Part shown: positions 1 to 9,077 of the stretch, in pieces
Numbering within the stretch: the stretch's first letter is position 1
Layout of the letters: the number at the start of each line of letters is the position of its first letter
NCBI GenBank assembly: GCA_007449985.2
Contig: VIIQ02000652.1
Location: 1-64,000, forward strand
Length of the DNA: 64,000 bases
Reading direction: 5' to 3'
DNA from: Desmodesmus armatus
Lineage: Eukaryota > Chlorophyta > Chlorophyceae > Sphaeropleales > Scenedesmaceae
The notes under the pieces: generated by a model
Database searches by the model: none
The model's input: the letters and a program-made list of their open reading frames with translations, nothing else
Told to the model about the DNA's origin: nothing
Program-made: the position numbers and the translations under genes

Positions 1-364
1 TTTTGTGGACTTGCCGCTGAGGAAGTACCCTCAAAGATCATGCGTGGATTGGTCAGCATGGCGGGAGCAGCAGTGCGCCCAGGCAACCCCATGCGCGCAA
101 GGGAGTATAATGTGGCAGAACCTGTGCCCACTAACAACCTTGGCGACACACGGCGCGCACGCAAGCGTCGGCACAACAGAGGGCCCAGGCCAGGCCCTGG
201 CTTGCAACCGACGGCAGAGCAGGACGCACCGCAAACAAAGGTCTCTGTGGTCGCCACAGTGCGTCACTCTGGCAAGGTCATCACTGCGCGCACAGTGCTG
301 ATGTGCCTACTCTGTTTCTTCTCAGTGCTGTGCTCCACAGCAGCAATGCAGGTTACCAACAGCA

Positions 365-3300
365 TTGGGGCAGCAGCCACTGGATCAGCACTGCAAGCTG
401 GCTACTTTCCCCTGCCACATGGCGTCCCACCACACCTCAACATGCACTTGCTGCAGCAGGAGCTTGCCAACCTGCATTGCAGTAGGTTTCGCTGCTACAG
501 CAGAGCATGATTCTGGCCAAGTGAAGTGGTACCAGGCCGACCCAGCAGCTCTGGACCAACTTGGGCCCGATGGCGCAACAGAAGATGTGCATGACGCCAG
601 ATGGACAGTGCACGATGAGGGCAAATGGATCTTGGGCAACCACCCAGATGCATCGCCTGCACAAATGGACCAGCTGGTGCAGATGCTGTTGGAGGAGCGA
701 GGGGCATTTGCTTACAGTCTGCAGGACTTGCCTGGCTACACAGGGGACGTAGCTGACTTCAAACTGATCGATCCCTCCAAACGTATGTGGAGCGCACCCA
801 GACGCTACACAGAAGAGGAGGTGAAGTTTGCCAAGGAGAAGGTGCAGGAGATGCTGGATGCGGGCATCGTAAAAGAAATTCCAACGACCTGTCCGCATGC
901 TTCAGCTATCACGTTGCCTATGAAGCGAGCACCCGACGGTAGCTGGACCGACAAGCGGTTCTGCATCGACCTGCGCAACGTCAACGGCAACACAGTGGTG
1001 GACAGTTACGGCCTGCCACTACCGGAAGAACTGTTTAGGCGAATTAGGGGGCACAAATTCTTGGTCAAGGCGGACTTTAGAGCGGGCTTTTGGCAGCTCA
1101 ACCTGAGCGAAGAGGCGCAGCAGCACGTGGCCTTCCACGCACCCGACAGTGGCAAGCGACTGACCTACACGCGGCTGTGTTTTGGTCACGTGAACGCCAC
1201 GGCAATTTTCCAGCGGGTTATGGAGAAGGAGCTGGCAGCAGCTGGTTTGTCTCACTGTGCGGCGCCGTTCGTCGATGACGTTATCATGTGGTGCGACACC
1301 TGGGAGGACATGGTGACCAACTTCAGAACACTTCTACAGCATCTCAAGACAGTGGGCTTGCGCCTGCACCCTGCCAAGACAATCGTGGGTGCAGACTGCT
1401 TGCCTTACCTGGGTCACCTGGTATCAGCCAAGGAGTGCAAGCCGGAGCCAGCCAAGATTGCAGGCATCAAGGCACTGCAGCCACCCACCAGCCTCAAGCG
1501 CCTGCAGGCCCACCTTGGCCTGTTTAATTACTACAGGTGCTATGTGCCCAACTTTGCCATCATTGCCAGGCCGCTTTACAAGCTTATGGAGAAGGGTGCG
1601 CAGTACATCTGGAGTGATGACTGTAACCAGGCGTATGAGGGGCTTCGAACGGCGCTGTGCAAGAAGGGTTTGGGGCTCAGGCAGCCTGTGGATGGGCGCA
1701 GTTTTCATCTGTATGTCGACTGGAGCAACACGGGCATTGCAGCTGTGCTGAATCAGGAGGCGGAGGATGGGACGGAGTACATGGTGGCCTGTGCCAGCAG
1801 GTCCCTCAATGCAGCTGAGCAGAACTATCCCGCCTGGAAAGGCGAGATGATGGCAGCAGTGTGGGGCGTCAAAATGTACAGGCCGTACTTGCACTCCAGG
1901 GAGTTCTATCTCCACAGCGACCACCGGGCGCTGTTATGGCTGCTGACACAGAAGACACCAGTGGGGCAGCAGATGCGTTGGATTCTGGCACTTCAGGAGT
2001 ACCGCTTCTCACTGGTGCACAGGGCAGGCAAGTCAAACCCAGCTGATGTGCCTAGCAGGGAAGCCAGTAGCTGTGTGGCAGACACCACTGGAGCCAGGTT
2101 GGACACGGAGCTGCATGACTGGGTGCCCACTGTGCTTCTGCCAGACTGCAAAACAACGGACCCACTGGTCTACACACATGACAGTCTGGCACTGGAGCTG
2201 GGCATTGGCAGCAAATCAACAGCAGCAGCTGGAGTGGCAGCAATGGCTTATGAGGAAACACCTGGTGACTGCCCAATCCTTCACAGCCCAGCAGCAGCGC
2301 TGGCGGCAGAACCAGCAGACAGCTACAGTCATGAACAGCTGGAGCACGAGGCGTTGTGTTGTCTACTGTGCAGCAACGAGTCTGCAGTGGACACATTCGC
2401 CCCAACCGCCGACTCATTGCTGGGGGGGGAGACAGCAGGACAACTTTTTGCTGACGATGGCTGCTGCGTGGACACACAACACCCAGCAGTAGCTTGGCGG
2501 CAGCATGACCTACAGCAGGCAGCATCGGCGTGGGTCACATTGGCAGGGCTACAACAGCCCCAACCGGACAGCTTCCAGCCAGGAGTGTACACAGGTGCAT
2601 TGGACCCCTGGGGCGTAAGGGAGACACAAGGGCTGTGCACGGCTACTGTGGCAGACACGTTCTTCCCGGCAGCGCTGCAGCAGGGCATCGTGCTTTATGA
2701 GCCGTTTGGTGGCATCTGCGCAGGGCTGGAGATGGTGCTCAGGAGTGGCATCACAGTCAAACAGTACCTGTACAGCGACATCAACCCCATGGCACAGCGG
2801 GCGGCGTTACACAGGATCAGGGTGCTGCAAAGCATGTATCCCAAGCAGCTACCGGAGGATGCTTTGGCTGGCAGTTTCAGCATTCTTCCCATGGATGTGA
2901 GGCACATCACCACACAGCAGCTCAGCAAGGCTGTCAGCGAGGCACCAGTCAAGCAATGGCTGGTAGTAGGAGGCTGGCCCTGTCAAGACTTCTCTGCAGC
3001 AGGCAAGTCACAGGGGCTTCGGGGTGATCGGGCTCAACTGCTGTTTGACCTGGTCAGGGTAGTGGGAGCGTTGCAACAGCTACTCCCACACCAGCCCCCA
3101 GCCTACCTGGTGGAGAATGTGCTCTTGCAGCAGCACAGGCTGAGCAGCATCAGTCAGCATGACTTCAATAAAATCAAGGCGTGCCTAGGGTTACCTGTGG
3201 TGCTGGACGCAGCACAGTTTGGCAGCCTTGCACATCGGGCGCGCAACTTCTGGTCCAACCTGGTTGGGCCCAGTCAACTGCGAGCAGCTTTGGCATTTGT

Positions 3301-6115
3301 CAAGAGGCCACCCGCACGCAGCGTACAGCTTGCCTTGGGACCTGGCAGGACCGCGCAACCTGTCAACCGACCAGACGCTGCTCCTCTCTACCCCTGCAAC
3401 GCACCAGGGCAGCCTCGCGCAGCCTGGCCTACCTTGGTCAGCAGCGCACGCTCCTACGCCTTCAGGCCTGGCCAGCCTGGCAGTGTTTTGGACACAACGG
3501 TGCCTGCTGTAGTCAAGTGGGGCGAGCCAACAGCAGAGGAGAGAGAGGTAGCTCTGGGCTATCTTCCAGGCAGCACAGCAGCAGCAGGCCTCACACAAGC
3601 GCAGCGGTGTGCGTTGCTCGGTGAAAGCATGGATGCCAACACTTTGCAGGTGCTCATGGCCATCGCCAAGGCTTGGTTCCTGCGGGGCCTGCCTACCTCT
3701 ACTGACTTGGCGACACGTGCATTCAGCGCACACGAAGGGGAACTGGCGCAGGAGTGGCCTGGCAGAGAGGCAACTGCAACCCCACATGGCTATCAGCAGC
3801 AGCTAGCCATGACAGCTGGCTACCAGGAGAACACTACGGCTACGAGCCAAGGTGACATCTGGGCCGACGATAAGACCCTGGAGTACATCAGAACAGGGCA
3901 ACTCCCACAAGACCTGGCAGCCAGCCAGGCAGCACGTATCAAGCGACGTGCACGCTCATACTACTTCAAGGACCAGCAGCTGATCAGGAGGATGCCAGAT
4001 GGCACCGACAGGCTGGTACCTCCACCACAGGCGCGTGCTGGTCTCATACGGCAGCAACACGAGATGTGTGGGCACTTTGGCAGGCGGCGCACCTCAGCCA
4101 TGCTACTCAGTAAGCACTGGTGGTATGGGTTACTGGCGGACGTTGCAACAGTGCTGTCACGCTGCGAGCACTGCAGCAGGGTGCATGCCAGCTTCACCGC
4201 CAAGCCGGAGGAGCTGCGCCCCATTCCAATCAGCAGCATGGGTTTCAGGTGGCACGTGGACACAGCTGGGCCACTACCCAAGAGTGCAAAGGGCAACAAG
4301 TATGTGCTGGTGTGTGTTGAGGCATTCAGCAAGTACCTGGTGGTGGTGCCGATGGAAAACGACAAGGCGGAGACCACTGCATACCACTTCTTGCACGGTG
4401 TATTGGCACACTTTGCAGCACCAGGGCAGGTGGTGACAGACTCAGGGACAGAGTTTGAGGGCGAGTTTGCCAAGCTCCTGGAGGATGCGCTCATCGATCA
4501 TGCCATCATCAGTGCAGACCACCCTCAGGCCAATGGTCAGGCAGAGAAGGCTGTGCACATCGTCAAGCGGGCGCTTACCAAAATGGCAGTGGCAAGGCAC
4601 AGTGTCAAGCAGTGGGATGAGGACTTGGCATGGCTGGCACTGGGCTACCGCTGCTCTCCACAGGCCAGCACAGGCCACAGCCCGTACGAACTCATGTATG
4701 CACGTCCACCGGTCATTCCACCTGCAGTGAAGGAGCTTGTCAGCACACCCCTGGACATCAGTGCTGAGGCGGCTGTCAAGGACCTACTGCAGCGTAAGGA
4801 GCGGCTAAAGCAGCAGGTGCCCATTGCGCTGGAGAACCTGGCGATTGCACAGCACAGGGATCAGCGCCGTTACCTGCAGCTGCGTGCGCCTGACTACAAG
4901 CCACGCGTTCACAGGTTTATGGTGGGTGACTACGTCTACACTCAGCAGCTTAACCGGGCAAGCAAGCTACAGCCCAGGGCCAAACCCCTCATTCTGCGAG
5001 TTCTGGAGGTGCGGGACTCTGGGGTACTGCACCTGCAGGGGCGCTGTGGCCGGACCATTGAGGTGCACATGTCTCACTGTGCACCCTGCCACTTGCCTGA
5101 TATCGACGGCGGCATCGACCCACTGCTGGTGGACAACACAGATGATGTGGTCTGTGAGGTATGCAGCACCAGCGACAACGGGGCCGAGCTCATGCTGTGT
5201 GACGTGTGCAACAGCGGATACCATACCTACTGCTTGCAACCACCACTCAGCAGTGTGCCTGACGGTGTGTGGCTGTGCCCGGAGTGTGTGGACGCTGGCT
5301 ACACAGAACAGGATGCTGCTGGCAGGGAGCAGCAGCGGCAGCAGCTACAGGAGCGGGAGGCCAGGCCAAACATATTCCCCGGCGCGCAAATGAAGCGCAG
5401 GGACGAAGCAGCACATGCGCTGCATGGCCGACTGGTGCTGAAGGCGTTCACGGATCCAGCCACCGGGAAAGGCAGGAAGTACTGGGGCAGGATCTACTTC
5501 AAGGATGCTGAGTCACGCCCATACTACTTCCGAGTGGTGTACGAAGATGGGGACTCTCACCACGCCACCATGGCAGGCATCAAGCGCTACCTGCAGCCGG
5601 AGGATGCAGTGCTGCCACCTGGGGCCAGCATTCCTACACCAGAGTCACTGGCAGCAGCAGTGGCGTACGCACGACAGCTGGTCAGCAGGGTTGCTGGCGG
5701 TTCAGTAGCTGTTCCTTCCACAAGGGTCTCACCGGCAGATGTGCAGTTGCTGCAGCTTACAGTGCAGATGTCCCTGGTTCAAGCCCTGGTGGACCCACTA
5801 ACACTCAACACCCAGTGGCAGCAGGTTTTTGCTGGGCGACCGTTCACTGTGGGCTGCGGGCCTGTACAGCACGGCGCTACAGCCATCATCATTACACCTA
5901 CAGCACCCTTTGTGCTTCATGCAGTTTTCACAGCACTGCAAATGAGGCCATTGGTGGTGCTCTGTTACGTGCCTTCACTGGCGTTTCCAGCTGACATCCA
6001 CCCTCTGTTCAGTGCACTCAAGCAGCAACGGCGAGCAGCAGCATTCAGGGGCAAGAATGGCTGCTGGCTGGTGCTCAGTAGGCAAGGCATAGACATCGAC
6101 AACTGGCTGCATTGA
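365..6115 (+). CDS. Retrotransposon polyprotein: RT - RNase H - C5 DNA methyltransferase - integrase - PHD finger - Tudor/chromo-like
   Basis: The protein copies element RNA into DNA, integrates it, and probably methylates cytosine in DNA. Residues are numbered from the ATG at 365. RT spans about 150-340, with catalytic D237 (ADFRAGF) and the FVDD box at 302-305. RNase H has D452, E494 and D519. A linker leads to a methyltransferase domain at about 772-1110. The integrase zinc site is H1232/H1237/C1267/C1270 and its triad D1299/D1359/E1394 has exact DD35E spacing. A PHD finger (C1597 to C1641) and a Tudor/chromo-like stretch near 1690-1750 (VVYEDGDS) follow. The first ~45 residues look spurious: an overlapping frame (40-510) reads more like protein there, so the true start is probably upstream, with a frameshift or splice near 480. 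No protease or gag is visible. Confidence 0.93.
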   Translation: MGQQPLDQHCKLATFPCHMASHHTSTCTCCSRSLPTCIAVGFAATAEHDSGQVKWYQADPAALDQLGPDGATEDVHDARWTVHDEGKWILGNHPDASPAQMDQLVQMLLEERGAFAYSLQDLPGYTGDVADFKLIDPSKRMWSAPRRYTEEEVKFAKEKVQEMLDAGIVKEIPTTCPHASAITLPMKRAPDGSWTDKRFCIDLRNVNGNTVVDSYGLPLPEELFRRIRGHKFLVKADFRAGFWQLNLSEEAQQHVAFHAPDSGKRLTYTRLCFGHVNATAIFQRVMEKELAAAGLSHCAAPFVDDVIMWCDTWEDMVTNFRTLLQHLKTVGLRLHPAKTIVGADCLPYLGHLVSAKECKPEPAKIAGIKALQPPTSLKRLQAHLGLFNYYRCYVPNFAIIARPLYKLMEKGAQYIWSDDCNQAYEGLRTALCKKGLGLRQPVDGRSFHLYVDWSNTGIAAVLNQEAEDGTEYMVACASRSLNAAEQNYPAWKGEMMAAVWGVKMYRPYLHSREFYLHSDHRALLWLLTQKTPVGQQMRWILALQEYRFSLVHRAGKSNPADVPSREASSCVADTTGARLDTELHDWVPTVLLPDCKTTDPLVYTHDSLALELGIGSKSTAAAGVAAMAYEETPGDCPILHSPAAALAAEPADSYSHEQLEHEALCCLLCSNESAVDTFAPTADSLLGGETAGQLFADDGCCVDTQHPAVAWRQHDLQQAASAWVTLAGLQQPQPDSFQPGVYTGALDPWGVRETQGLCTATVADTFFPAALQQGIVLYEPFGGICAGLEMVLRSGITVKQYLYSDINPMAQRAALHRIRVLQSMYPKQLPEDALAGSFSILPMDVRHITTQQLSKAVSEAPVKQWLVVGGWPCQDFSAAGKSQGLRGDRAQLLFDLVRVVGALQQLLPHQPPAYLVENVLLQQHRLSSISQHDFNKIKACLGLPVVLDAAQFGSLAHRARNFWSNLVGPSQLRAALAFVKRPPARSVQLALGPGRTAQPVNRPDAAPLYPCNAPGQPRAAWPTLVSSARSYAFRPGQPGSVLDTTVPAVVKWGEPTAEEREVALGYLPGSTAAAGLTQAQRCALLGESMDANTLQVLMAIAKAWFLRGLPTSTDLATRAFSAHEGELAQEWPGREATATPHGYQQQLAMTAGYQENTTATSQGDIWADDKTLEYIRTGQLPQDLAASQAARIKRRARSYYFKDQQLIRRMPDGTDRLVPPPQARAGLIRQQHEMCGHFGRRRTSAMLLSKHWWYGLLADVATVLSRCEHCSRVHASFTAKPEELRPIPISSMGFRWHVDTAGPLPKSAKGNKYVLVCVEAFSKYLVVVPMENDKAETTAYHFLHGVLAHFAAPGQVVTDSGTEFEGEFAKLLEDALIDHAIISADHPQANGQAEKAVHIVKRALTKMAVARHSVKQWDEDLAWLALGYRCSPQASTGHSPYELMYARPPVIPPAVKELVSTPLDISAEAAVKDLLQRKERLKQQVPIALENLAIAQHRDQRRYLQLRAPDYKPRVHRFMVGDYVYTQQLNRASKLQPRAKPLILRVLEVRDSGVLHLQGRCGRTIEVHMSHCAPCHLPDIDGGIDPLLVDNTDDVVCEVCSTSDNGAELMLCDVCNSGYHTYCLQPPLSSVPDGVWLCPECVDAGYTEQDAAGREQQRQQLQEREARPNIFPGAQMKRRDEAAHALHGRLVLKAFTDPATGKGRKYWGRIYFKDAESRPYYFRVVYEDGDSHHATMAGIKRYLQPEDAVLPPGASIPTPESLAAAVAYARQLVSRVAGGSVAVPSTRVSPADVQLLQLTVQMSLVQALVDPLTLNTQWQQVFAGRPFTVGCGPVQHGATAIIITPTAPFVLHAVFTALQMRPLVVLCYVPSLAFPADIHPLFSALKQQRRAAAFRGKNGCWLVLSRQGIDIDNWLH
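2660..3700 (+). other. C5 cytosine DNA methyltransferase domain inside the retrotransposon polyprotein
   Basis: All core C5-MTase motifs are visible in order. Motif I, the SAM-binding loop, is LYEPFGGICAGLE from residue 777. Motif IV is GGWPCQDFSAAGK with catalytic C873. Motif VI is ENV at 917-919. Motif VIII is AHRARNFW at 956-963. The motif X region around 1083 is ALLGESM. AHRAR followed by NFW/YFW, and the LLG-S signature near the end, resemble DNMT3-type enzymes, whereas PCQ at motif IV is typical of DNMT1 and bacterial enzymes. No catalytic residue is missing. The domain sits between RNase H and the integrase and is flanked by linkers of low similarity to anything I recognise. It has no stop or frameshift, so it was probably functional when last transposed. 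Confidence 0.93.
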
Positions 6116-6290
6116 GCACTGGATGCTCGGTTCATTATCTCGGTCCGGTTTCGCTAAGACGGCGCAGTAGTAGCTTAGCACCAAGGGGCTTCAAGGAAGG
6201 GGGGGCATGATAGTGCATACTGCAGGCTGACTAAGCAGGTGATTAGCTGACACGCTCAACCTTCTGTCCTGCACTGCTAACCTCTCCACT

Positions 6291-7526
6291 GTGCAGGGCG
6301 TGTTCTCATTTATGCCCGACACAGCACCTGGTGCCAGCAGTGTAATAGAGGAGCAGCTGGACTACGGGGAGGACTCCTGGGAGGAGTTGCAGGAGCAGCC
6401 AGTCAGTGAGGAAGTGGCACTGCTAGGATCTGGAGAGGAGGAGTTGCCTCAGCAGCCAGACAGTGAGGGTGCAGAGCAGCCGGACTTTGGGGGCGAGGGC
6501 TTGCCTGAGGAGCCCATGCAGCAGGACATAGCAGCTCACATGGACCTGCCTGCAGCAGTAGCGGAGGACCCAGCCGGCCAACTGGTCACGAGGGTACGCG
6601 CAATCTACCATGGGCTTCGGCGGGACAGGGATGAGCTGAGGGGTATTGACAGGAGCTTGTGGCAGCTTACACTAGAGCAGCAGCGATGGGTGGAGCGCGA
6701 AGCAGCAATGGACGTGCTTGGCATCACCCGTGTTGCATGTCACCTTGGCGGCTATGCCAACGGGATGTCAGAGGACCTCACAGTTGCGGCAAGGCGGGCA
6801 AAGGAGGCAGACCAGCACATGCTGCAGAATGCAGATACAGACTTGGAGGCAGAAGCAGCACGGGCAGCTGCAGCAAGGGAGGCTGCAGCAAGGGAGGCTG
6901 CAGCAAGGGAGGCTGCAGCAGCTGAAGCACTTGCAAAGGAGGCAGCAGCGAAGGCAAGGGCTGCAGAAGGGAACCGCGCAGTAGAGCCGGCAGCAAACCA
7001 GGAGGCACCTGCAGCAGTAGGCTTTGATTGGAGTCGCGTGAAACTACCCTTAGAGTTTGTGCCTCCGCAGCGCGGAAGCAGCAGCAGCGGCAAGGGTAAT
7101 GATGGGGAGCATACGCAGGAGCGCAGCGGGAGCCGCGGCCGCAGCCCCAATGCCGACAACAGGGAGCGCAAGCCCAAACGCAGCAGGAGCCGCAGCAAGG
7201 GCCGCGGCAAGGACGACAACCAGGACCGTGGTGGTCGCAGCAGCAGCAAGTACGACATGGACGGGCCTCCCAAACCCGCAGACGTACCTGAGTACGAGCT
7301 CCCTCCTTTGGGCTTTACCCGCAACAACTGCAGGGTGGGCAAGGACGGTTATGGATTAGCAGGAGTTATGGATTACCAGGGCACGTGGTTCCCAGTGGCA
7401 GCACACGACCCAGCGCACAACCCGGAGAAGAACCCAAAACTTAACGACACATGCCCAATCTGCTTCCTGCGAACAGCATACAAGCAGGATCGCCTGGCAT
7501 ACCGTTCCAACACCCGGCGCAGGTAA
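6291..7526 (+). CDS. Second ORF of the DNMT retrotransposon, Ala coiled-coil / RS-rich, unknown function
   Basis: This 411-residue frame begins 176 nt after the polyprotein stop on the same strand, ahead of the 3' LTR. Residues 1-90 are acidic and Gln/Glu-rich. A central Ala-rich helix contains three tandem AAREA-type repeats (about 190-220) and probably forms a coiled coil. Residues 265-330 are rich in Arg-Ser and Lys (RSRSKGRGK), like RNA-binding or nuclear-speckle proteins. The C-terminus has one CPIC motif and a basic end. I recognise no family. A Gag-like or nucleic-acid-binding accessory role is plausible from composition and position but unproven. Gag normally precedes Pol, so a Gag at the 3' end would be unusual. 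Nothing shows how it is translated; an internal start, a subgenomic transcript or splicing are all possible. Confidence 0.7.
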   Translation: MQGVFSFMPDTAPGASSVIEEQLDYGEDSWEELQEQPVSEEVALLGSGEEELPQQPDSEGAEQPDFGGEGLPEEPMQQDIAAHMDLPAAVAEDPAGQLVTRVRAIYHGLRRDRDELRGIDRSLWQLTLEQQRWVEREAAMDVLGITRVACHLGGYANGMSEDLTVAARRAKEADQHMLQNADTDLEAEAARAAAAREAAAREAAAREAAAAEALAKEAAAKARAAEGNRAVEPAANQEAPAAVGFDWSRVKLPLEFVPPQRGSSSSGKGNDGEHTQERSGSRGRSPNADNRERKPKRSRSRSKGRGKDDNQDRGGRSSSKYDMDGPPKPADVPEYELPPLGFTRNNCRVGKDGYGLAGVMDYQGTWFPVAAHDPAHNPEKNPKLNDTCPICFLRTAYKQDRLAYRSNTRRR

Positions 7527-8262
7527 TGATATGGCAGAGACAGCAGGTGCTGCCGCAGCAATTAGCAGCAGCAGCAGCAATTGCTGGGCCGTCTGGATTG
7601 GCCTTTGGTAGCGACAACAGCTTTTGGCAGCAGTGGTTTAAGGCCGTCTGGAGTGGCCTCTGCTGGAGCGATGGTTTGTGCCAGCTGGGGGTGCCCAGAC
7701 TGGCAAGCAGCTTTGCAGGAGGTTGGGAGCAGCAGTTGATTTATTGGACATTGTGGATAGTAGCTTTGCCTTTCACATGCGAACGATGTGGGGGCATCTG
7801 TCCTGCTTGCATGTTGGTTGGGATTTAGCAGCAGTGAGCGCAAAGGGCCACTGTTTGTGCTTGTCAAGCTCAGTGAAATATGCTTCCTGAGTAGTTAAGT
7901 GAGTGCTGCATGACTCACTTGTGTGCAGCAGATCCAGCAGTGGCTGGGTTTGTTTGTCAATTATGTGTGTGTGTTTTATTGACTGTGCAATGCACAAACA
8001 TCACATGCGTTGTAGTGTGTGTGCCCAGCGTCTGGATGTGCCTAGATGCCGTGGTGAGAAAAGACAAAAAACAAAAATGTCTGTTGACTTGTGTTGTGTG
8101 GTCACAGCAGCATTCTCTGCAAGCAATGTGCAGTTTTCCCCGTGCGTTGCGCATCAGCTGTGTGCTATCAGCTGTTGCATGTTGCTTTTGGATTGGGTTG
8201 TTTGTAGCTGCTCAATGTGAGTACTGCTGCTGTGTAGTGTTACCCCAGCAGCAGTGGGGGGG
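7527..8262 (+). other. 3' noncoding tail of the retrotransposon
   Basis: There is no supported gene between the second ORF and the putative 3' LTR. The stretch contains CAG/CTG runs and a near-repeat of GGCCGTCTGGATTGGCCT (7587 and 7641). It ends in a purine-rich tract, GCAGTGGGGGGGAGTG, whose position fits a polypurine tract for plus-strand priming. Confidence 0.5.
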
Positions 8263-8264
8263 AG

Positions 8265-8904
8265 TGTACACCCCTAGCAGCAATCTGAGCAGGTCAGTGT
8301 TCTACTGCGTCAGCTGACACGAGCAGCAGCTACACTGACCGATTCCTGCTGAGTGAGCAGTAATCCTCACAGGAAGGTTATGCTGTGTACAAGGCTATAC
8401 AACACATGCCTTAGCAGAATCAGTGTGATAGTTGACTAATCATGTTGAGTCAACAAGGACTCTGGGTGATATCAGATCATGCCAGATACTGCTGCGTGGC
8501 AGTGCTATTATTGGTGGTTAAGTGCTTGGGAGTTGTATGCGATGAGTTTGGTGCTGCGATGCACAGGATCACTGGCGGGTTCAGGGTTTACCGCCTGCAG
8601 TGCCGATTCCTTTGTGCCGCTGTGGTGCTCTGTGCGTCGCACTCGGCTTTGACAGTGCTTGGTGTAAACTTCTGGCAGTGTTTCCCGAGTACTCGCTCAT
8701 TTGAATCCCCAATTCAGAGCGCACAGGTGCAGCAACCAGCCCCAGCAGCGACCTGTGGTCGAACCGGGTGCCTGAACATCACTCATACATTCATACAGCG
8801 CATCAACACTTTGCAAAGGACTACAAGTGAGTATCTGCTACCCTCAGAGCAGCCAGCTGGCTGCGAAGCATCATTGCTGCAAGCTTTAGGCAGCAAACCA
8901 CAAG
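8265..8904 (+). repeat. Putative 3' LTR of the DNMT retrotransposon
   Basis: The segment starts with TGTACACCCC directly after the purine tract. The same 50-bp start occurs at 8263-8312 and 8903-8952, exactly 640 bp apart. The second copy could mark the start of a tandem partial LTR or a micro-duplication. Because the partner 5' LTR is outside the window, the right border is a guess. Confidence 0.45.
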
Positions 8905-8952
8905 TGTACACCCCTAGCAGCAATCTGAGCAGGTCAGTGTTCTACTGCGTCA
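8903..8952 (+). repeat. Second copy of the 50-bp LTR-start block
   Basis: This block is identical over 50 bp to 8263-8312 and then diverges abruptly at both sides. It lies between the retrotransposon and the stop codon of the topoisomerase gene (9078). Confidence 0.85.
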
Positions 8953-9077
8953 TCCTGATTGTGCTGGCCTGCACACCACAGCAGAGGGCTGCGTGCACAG
9001 CTGCCACATACATGTGTGAAGATTGCTCTCAAACTTGCTCACACAAATGACTGCACAGCTGCTACACAAGGGACCAC

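What the first reader, a model, noticed from the sequence alone, without database searches (positions are those of the whole stretch)
365..6115. LTR retrotransposon that encodes its own cytosine DNA methyltransferase
A complete C5-MTase (FGGICAG, PCQ with C873, ENV, AHRAR, LLGESM) lies in frame between RNase H and a DD35E integrase in one intact 1,916-codon frame. As I recall, methyltransferase-carrying retrotransposons have been reported in dinoflagellates and a streptophyte alga; this copy is in what looks like a chlorophyte. An element that writes DNA methylation could restrain or protect itself in the host genome.
Basis: partly seen in the sequence, partly recalled or inferred. Interest (0 to 1): 0.92.

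Follow-up and report, generated by a model that had tools for sequence, protein, structure and literature searches.

The report
Green-algal retrotransposon carrying a DNA methyltransferase
This is a young, many-copy jumping element, probably of a green alga, that carries its own DNMT3-like DNA-methylating enzyme and a histone-reading finger, has unusual ends, and belongs to an old lineage of such elements.

Summary
The MTase is DNMT3-type by sequence and fold (all 50 listed Foldseek hits). It is no assembly join: 34 of 40 scored copies are identical over 1,021 bp. The contig starts inside the element; a complete copy elsewhere is 13.9 kb, TG...CA, with 4-bp target duplications in 5 of 7 copies read at both ends.

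It is not a plain LTR element. Repeats run A-internal-B-A-B, DIRS-like, although integration is of the DDE type; a second subfamily with unrelated repeats has the same plan. The only published parallel I found is KnitGypsy-Dnmt3 of Klebsormidium.

Scenedesmus and Monoraphidium proteins have the same domain order; Closterium elements carry a homologous MTase upstream of RT. RT and MTase trees largely agree, suggesting one old lineage rather than repeated capture (weak rooting; Klebsormidium not compared). The MTase is under purifying selection. Best reading: a recently active element whose MTase modifies its own new DNA or insertion site. Activity is untested, and CpG content gives no sign of self-methylation.

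The parts
1..8952 (+). 3' two thirds of one A-internal-B-A-B retroelement copy; its 5' part lies on contig C589
   Evidence: aligned with complete copy C559 and nine other copies; same 3' flank as C589
1..510 (+). 3' end of ORF1 (gag-protease-like; 1,475 aa in the complete copy C559). No Pfam family above its cut-off; a DSGAT protease-like motif is seen by eye only
302..6115 (+). pol open frame, 1,937 codons from stop to stop
968..1417 (+). reverse transcriptase (RVT_1), FVDD active site
1610..2002 (+). RNase H
2660..3697 (+). DNMT3-type C5 methyltransferase domain, motifs I, IV (Cys), VI, VIII and X present
4019..4186 (+). Integrase_H2C2 zinc finger
4247..4516 (+). DDE integrase core (rve), D-59-D-34-E; the Glu lies just 3' of the Pfam match
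5153..5287 (+). PHD finger
5426..5560 (+). Tudor-like stretch, below Pfam cut-off
   Evidence: strands in model, not confirmed by fold search
6291..7526 (+). ORF3, 411 aa, no Pfam family; role unknown
8254..8264 (+). polypurine-tract-like GTGGGGGGGAG directly before B1
   Evidence: by eye
8263..8312 (+). repeat B1, ends in CA (first two bases shared with the end of A)
8313..8314 (+). GC between B1 (CA) and A2 (TG), as if the two element ends were joined
   Evidence: same dinucleotide in subfamily C78
8315..8904 (+). repeat A2, starts with TG
8903..8952 (+). repeat B2, ends in CA: 3' end of the element
8953..8956 (+). TCCT, one copy of the 4-bp target duplication; the other precedes A1 on contig C589

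Best explanation
A recently and heavily transposed Ty3/gypsy-type retroelement whose Pol carries a DNMT3-type C5 methyltransferase between RNase H and a DDE integrase, and a PHD finger behind the integrase. Shown: anatomy, copies, ends, target duplications, DNMT3 affinity, purifying selection on the MTase, wide spread of the lineage. Inferred: the cDNA ends, or a circle junction, are completed with the help of the internal B1-GC-A2 junction, so that each insertion starts with A and ends with B; the integrase inserts with a 4-bp stagger, guided by the PHD finger to chromatin with a particular H3 tail state (by likeness unmodified H3K4); the MTase, made as part of the same polyprotein, methylates (by analogy at CG) the new cDNA or the fresh insertion, so that the copy passes as host DNA or is kept quiet enough to be tolerated.
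For: Domains; 34 of 40 scored copies identical; TG...CA ends and 4-bp duplications in 5 of 7 copies and in subfamily C78; DNMT3 affinity by profile and by a model of pLDDT 93.7 with all 50 listed Foldseek hits DNMT3; catalytic Cys in 182 of 184 near-complete homologous domains; dN/dS 0.095-0.11 in the MTase between subfamilies at dS about 0.7, lower than adjoining pol in three of four pairs and equal to the integrase side in the fourth; PHD best like H3-tail readers; CG methylation by SymbioDIRS DNMT3 domains in yeast (PMC5890265).
Against: No activity, methylome or expression data for this element. CpG observed/expected is 0.50 in the element and 0.47 in the rest of the window, so no element-specific trace. 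The only gypsy-encoded DNMT3 tested, KnitGypsy, gave no methylation in yeast (called inconclusive by its authors). In about half of the homologous MTases the Pro before the catalytic Cys is Glu (98 of 184), so chemistry or substrate may differ. Cleavage of the polyprotein and target of the PHD finger are unknown.
Confidence: 0.5

Rival explanations
1. The MTase acts mainly on the host genome or on competing DNA (other elements, DNA viruses), or disturbs host silencing; its benefit to the element is indirect.
For: The whole 64-kb window is CpG-poor (0.47) with raised TpG and CpA, as expected of a generally CG-methylated genome; de Mendoza et al. propose effects on the host methylome (PMC5890265); a defence role for retrotransposon methylases was proposed in an opinion paper (PMC6338049).
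Against: The domain is part of Pol, between RNase H and integrase, which points to action in the particle or at integration; no data on host targets.
Confidence: 0.25
2. The domain no longer methylates DNA: it serves as a structural or nucleic-acid-binding part of Pol, or methylates RNA.
For: Glu replaces Pro before the catalytic Cys in 98 of 184 homologous domains; KnitGypsy-Dnmt3 showed no DNA methylation in yeast.
Against: The window copy has PCQ; Cys, Glu-Asn and Arg motif positions are each kept in 181-182 of 184 homologous domains, more than a mere scaffold needs.
Confidence: 0.15
3. Passenger: a captured domain of no use to the element, kept by the recent burst only.
For: The youngest family is a burst of near-identical copies.
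Against: Old subfamilies at 44-62% identity keep the domain open, dN/dS is about 0.1, and 102 of 120 relatives found by RT alone have an MTase match.
Confidence: 0.05
4. Assembly join or chance neighbourhood of a host gene and a retroelement.
For: The window copy starts at a contig edge.
Against: 34 of 40 scored copies identical on 33 contigs, different flanks with matching target duplications, same order in proteins of other sources.
Confidence: 0.01

Closest known systems
KnitGypsy-Dnmt3 of Klebsormidium nitens (de Mendoza et al. 2018, PMC5890265)
   Same: Gypsy-type Pol with an embedded DNMT3-type MTase under purifying selection, and repeats described as DIRS-like (figure legend)
   Different: Host group. 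Sequence, domain order and PHD finger of KnitGypsy were not available to me, so kinship was not tested
SymbioDIRS-Dnmt3 of Symbiodinium (same paper)
   Same: DNMT3 inside Pol; A-coding-B-A-B repeats
   Different: They use a tyrosine recombinase; here a DDE integrase with 4-bp target duplications. The authors find gypsy and DIRS only distantly related
Closterium sp. NIES-53/54 elements P0179, P0181, P0182 and relatives
   Same: Gypsy-type RT, RNase H, integrase and a homologous MTase
   Different: MTase lies upstream of RT; P0179 has a CCHC knuckle and no PHD match
pol of Scenedesmus sp. PABB004 (P0046)
   Same: RT, RNase H, MTase, H2C2, rve, PHD; nearest named relative in the RT tree
   Different: 50% identity in RT, 47% in the MTase region; annotated only as pol
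Algal chromoviruses (Chlamyvir; PMC6317226, passages)
   Same: Gypsy-type Pol with a chromatin reader behind the integrase
   Different: Their reader is a chromodomain; here a PHD finger, and an MTase is added
DNMT3A/DNMT3B
   Same: Fold and best sequence match
   Different: About 22% identity in the fold alignment; no PWWP or ADD domain found in pol; companions are RT, RNase H and integrase

Membership tests
Ty3/gypsy retrotransposon | Pol order RT, RNase H, integrase (rve) | tested here: met
Ty3/gypsy retrotransposon | TG...CA ends and short target duplication | tested here: met
   4 bp in 5 of 7 copies, not in C629 and C99; TTGT in C78
Ty3/gypsy retrotransposon | Two equal LTRs, one at each end | tested here: not met
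   A at the 5' end, B-A-B at the 3' end
Ty3/gypsy retrotransposon | tRNA primer-binding site after the 5' repeat | tested here: inconclusive
   no TGG directly behind A1 in either subfamily, by eye; not compared with the host's tRNAs
DIRS-like retrotransposon | Split direct repeats A-coding-B-A-B | tested here: met
DIRS-like retrotransposon | Tyrosine recombinase and no target duplication | tested here: not met
   no such Pfam match in ORF1, pol or ORF3; target duplications present
Chromovirus | Chromodomain behind the integrase | tested here: not met
   PHD instead
KnitGypsy-Dnmt3 lineage | Gypsy Pol with DNMT3 and DIRS-like repeats | tested here: met
   published description
KnitGypsy-Dnmt3 lineage | Common descent of RT and MTase with the Klebsormidium element | not tested
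   no Klebsormidium protein was named among the hits
DNMT3 methyltransferases | Best sequence and fold match to DNMT3, motif order I-IV-VI-VIII-X not rearranged | tested here: met
DNMT3 methyltransferases | Groups with host DNMT3s in a tree | not tested
   no algal or plant host DNMT3 sequences were at hand; only DNMT3A fragments served as a root
DNMT3 methyltransferases | De novo cytosine methylation | not testable with these tools
   needs an assay

The most novel reading that the evidence does not exclude
One gypsy-type lineage of green plants acquired a DNMT3 once, before chlorophytes and streptophytes parted or with later spread between them. It combines DIRS-like split repeats with a DDE integrase, so that an end-completed or circular cDNA is inserted through an abutted CA-GC-TG junction, a route I did not find described for gypsy elements. 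In chlorophytes the MTase moved from upstream of RT to between RNase H and integrase and was paired with a PHD finger: an element that both writes DNA methylation and reads histones. This would replace the published view of a separate capture in charophytes.
Probability: 0.4. Interest if true: 0.78.

Novelty: new variant of a known kind. Interest (0 to 1): 0.62.

Why it matters
Retrotransposons that write the mark normally used to silence them are a puzzle, and the one published gypsy-type case gave no activity in the yeast test. Here is a family with at least 34 copies identical over the MTase, hence moved very recently, in a 116-Mb genome, with clean ends and target duplications: methylation of new against old insertions could be read directly by nanopore sequencing. 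That the same fusion recurs in most RT-nearest relatives (102 of 120) suggests that the MTase is a standing part of the life cycle. Split repeats together with a DDE integrase raise a replication question of their own.

Tried and rejected
Plain two-LTR reading: rejected, the 5' end lacks B and the 3' end has an extra B. Free opening of a two-repeat circle at either junction: disfavoured, since it should give ABA-internal-B half the time, yet in 10 of 10 5' ends read the first A is preceded directly by unique flank. DIRS membership: rejected. CpG depletion as a trace of self-methylation: not found. Substitution contexts in old copies: of seven copies compared, six were too similar to tell; the one diverged copy (L055) shows C-to-T type changes at 13 of 78 CG positions against 12 of 197 CHG and 22 of 330 CHH, suggestive only. 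Host naming by assembly size: one paper search listed only an 80.8-Mb Ulva genome; not pursued. Literature for a chlorophyte gypsy element with a DNMT: searches and 74 of the open library listed none to my eye, but most hits were seen as listings only; [quoted passage not shown]

What was seen of papers: PMC5890265, parts 1 and 2 of 7, section 9 and passages; PMC12344493, passages and section 5; PMC6338049 and PMC6317226, passages; all others as search listings.

Rows dropped: the MTase model used 21 of 42 mutually dissimilar rows, these out of 79 near-complete domains plus the window. The C-terminal model used 13 of the 14 pieces chosen (window plus 13 of 158 database proteins with a match, of which one, P0015, was left out when pasting). 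RT tree: 44 rows, being 23 RT-MT-IN chosen for dissimilarity, 13 MT-RT-IN and 8 without MTase; one of nine outgroup candidates (P0142) failed the length filter. MTase tree: 43 rows. 137 of 223 rows had both domains near-complete. The order of P0061, P0085, P0089 and P0222 rests on profile coordinates alone, and P0076 and the Tetrabaena proteins are irregular gene models. dN/dS: 11 loci plus the window; many pairs were saturated.

Full report
Observation. The window is contig C621, bases 1-64000, of a 115.8-Mb genome in 831 contigs. The pol frame runs 302-6115 from stop to stop. FGGICAG, PCQD, ENV, AHRAR and LLGES begin at residues 801, 892, 937, 976 and 1104 counted from codon 305. The integrase is D-59-D-34-E.

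Copies. Of 69 DNA candidates 40 were scored, and 34 of these are identical to window 2680-3700 over all 1,021 bases, on 33 contigs. Of 95 protein matches, 33 are 100% over all 346 residues and 16 of these lie in a frame of exactly 1,937 codons. Older subfamilies at about 62, 59, 57, 50 and 46% identity are present, several with long open frames. So the fusion is no assembly join, and the youngest family moved very recently.

Complete structure. Copy C559 (L025, L026) has A1 (591 bp), ORF1 of 1,475 aa, pol, ORF3, B1 (about 50 bp), A2 and B2. The element starts TGACACG and ends GCGTCA; between B1 and A2 stands GC. Seven copies were read at both ends: five have identical 4-bp duplications (C559, C654, C39, C13, C589), two do not (C629, C99); five or more of seven by chance has probability 2e-11. 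The 3' flank of the window copy matches that of C589 apart from small differences, so both contigs hold one insertion and the 5' part of the window copy lies on C589. In C559 pol is in the +1 frame of ORF1 with 206 nt overlap. A second subfamily, C78, has no nucleotide similarity to C559 in its ends, yet the same plan: A 527 bp, B 194 bp, A-internal-B-GC-A-B, TG...CA and a TTGT duplication. Two partial copies, C718 and C671, end at or near B1 without A2-B2 and lack 5' parts.

Why the repeats are odd. A polypurine-like tract lies directly before B1, so ordinary reverse transcription would be expected to yield B-A repeats at both ends. Insertions instead begin at A and end at B, and the internal B1-GC-A2 junction looks like the two element ends joined. 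In the DIRS scheme (recalled, not looked up) such a junction helps to complete or circularise the cDNA. Here a DDE integrase rather than a tyrosine recombinase does the insertion: no tyrosine recombinase family was found in ORF1, pol or ORF3. Free choice between the two junctions of a circle is unlikely, as 10 of 10 5' ends read have unique sequence directly before A1. The 2018 paper describes, in a figure legend, DIRS-like repeats with gypsy domains for KnitGypsy-Dnmt3.

The methyltransferase. By single sequence and by profile the best solved relatives are DNMT3A and DNMT3B, then plant DRM enzymes, then bacterial enzymes. The AlphaFold2 model (21 rows) has mean pLDDT 93.7, and all 50 listed Foldseek hits are DNMT3 entries, TM 0.57-0.68 by query length. 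In 184 near-complete domains of retrieved proteins the catalytic Cys is present in 182; the residue before it is Glu in 98 and Pro in 76. Between subfamilies with unsaturated dS (about 0.7) the MTase has dN/dS 0.095-0.11; one further pair at dS 1.0 has 0.18. In four pairs compared with adjoining pol stretches, the MTase is the more constrained in three; in the fourth the 330 codons downstream equal it, 0.125 against 0.128.

The reader domain. The C-terminal 332 residues were modelled from 13 rows (pLDDT 81.6, pTM 0.44). Only the PHD finger is recognised with confidence; profile and fold hits are PHDs such as those of CHD4, ATXR5, KDM5, BAZ2 and UHRF1. Binding of unmodified H3 tails is named in some PDB titles (BAZ2A, ORC1b, UHRF1) and otherwise recalled. 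The Tudor-like match stays below its cut-off.

Relatives. Three protein searches listed 90, 120 and 81 proteins, 222 distinct, of which 204 have an MTase match. Two of the three searches asked for the MTase itself, so the fair figure is that of the RT search: 102 of 120 (listed at E up to 1e-60) have an MTase match; the other 18 are seven with RT alone by my profiles and eleven with RT and integrase, mostly distant gypsy elements. Order by profile: RT-MT-IN in 149 database proteins and the window, MT-RT-IN in 15, MT-RT in 4, the rest partial. Named: Scenedesmus sp. PABB004 and Monoraphidium neglectum with the window's order; Haematococcus lacustris and Tetrabaena socialis as irregular gene models with an MTase match; Closterium NIES-53/54, a streptophyte (recalled), with the other order. 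P0013 and P0038 bear names that look like transcriptome-assembly records (recalled format), which would mean that such elements are transcribed.

Trees. RT, 44 rows: the eight rows without MTase are separated from the 36 with it by one branch (support 100); RT-MT-IN is one group (99); MT-RT-IN is one group with support 12 only. The root is set by the chosen outgroup, so a double gain or a loss cannot be ruled out. MTase, 43 rows, rooted on DNMT3A fragments: RT-MT-IN plus one long-branch row (P0085) form a group (98) nested in a grade of MT-RT-IN forms; many deep forks are open. P0180 combines a PHD finger with an MTase upstream of RT, an intermediate in layout. I read this as co-inheritance of RT and MTase and one relocation of the MTase; it is not proven, and Klebsormidium was not in the set.

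Methylation traces. CpG observed/expected is 0.50 in the element and 0.47 in the rest of the window, with raised TpG and CpA throughout. This fits a CG-methylated host and gives no evidence of self-methylation.

Literature. Published cases are dinoflagellate LINE and DIRS elements and Klebsormidium gypsy elements; SymbioDIRS enzymes methylated CG in yeast, the KnitGypsy one did not, called inconclusive (PMC5890265). A 2025 survey names, for retrotransposon-embedded DNMT3, streptophytes and dinoflagellates (PMC12344493, section read). I found no description of this chlorophyte lineage in the searches listed under Tried and rejected.

Verdict. Function is inferred.

Noticed in passing
window 6291-7526: ORF3 of 411 aa behind pol, no Pfam family; no ORF of that size in the corresponding 3' part of subfamily C78 that was fetched.
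   Followed up: partly
MTase motif IV, pol residue 892 in the window: Glu instead of Pro before the catalytic Cys in 98 of 184 homologous domains and in 14 of 16 with the MTase upstream of RT; the window copy has Pro.
   Followed up: no
C589 end and C621 start (window 1-8956): Two contigs overlap over the same insertion and were not merged; many copies sit near contig ends, so this repeat probably breaks the assembly and inflates copy counts.
   Followed up: partly
C634 (L023, L024): Two copies stand tail to tail, abutting at the ends of A without B2 between them; may be a real inverted pair or an assembly artefact.
   Followed up: no
C718 and C671 (L040, L046): Copies that end at or near B1, followed at once or soon by a G run, without A2-B2, and with 5' parts missing.
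   Followed up: partly
P0172-P0175, P0177, P0178, P0192: About 1,200-1,340-aa proteins with an MTase match but no RT match by my profiles; in the two scanned (P0172, P0175) a protease-like match precedes the MTase. Possibly elements with the MTase on the gag-protease ORF.
   Followed up: no
whole window: CpG observed/expected 0.40-0.54 in all 5-kb pieces behind the element, consistent with general CG methylation of the host.
   Followed up: no
C99 (L041, L042): No duplication directly at the ends, but GGGG before A1 and GC-GGGG after B2: the GC dinucleotide may have been kept at this end.
   Followed up: no
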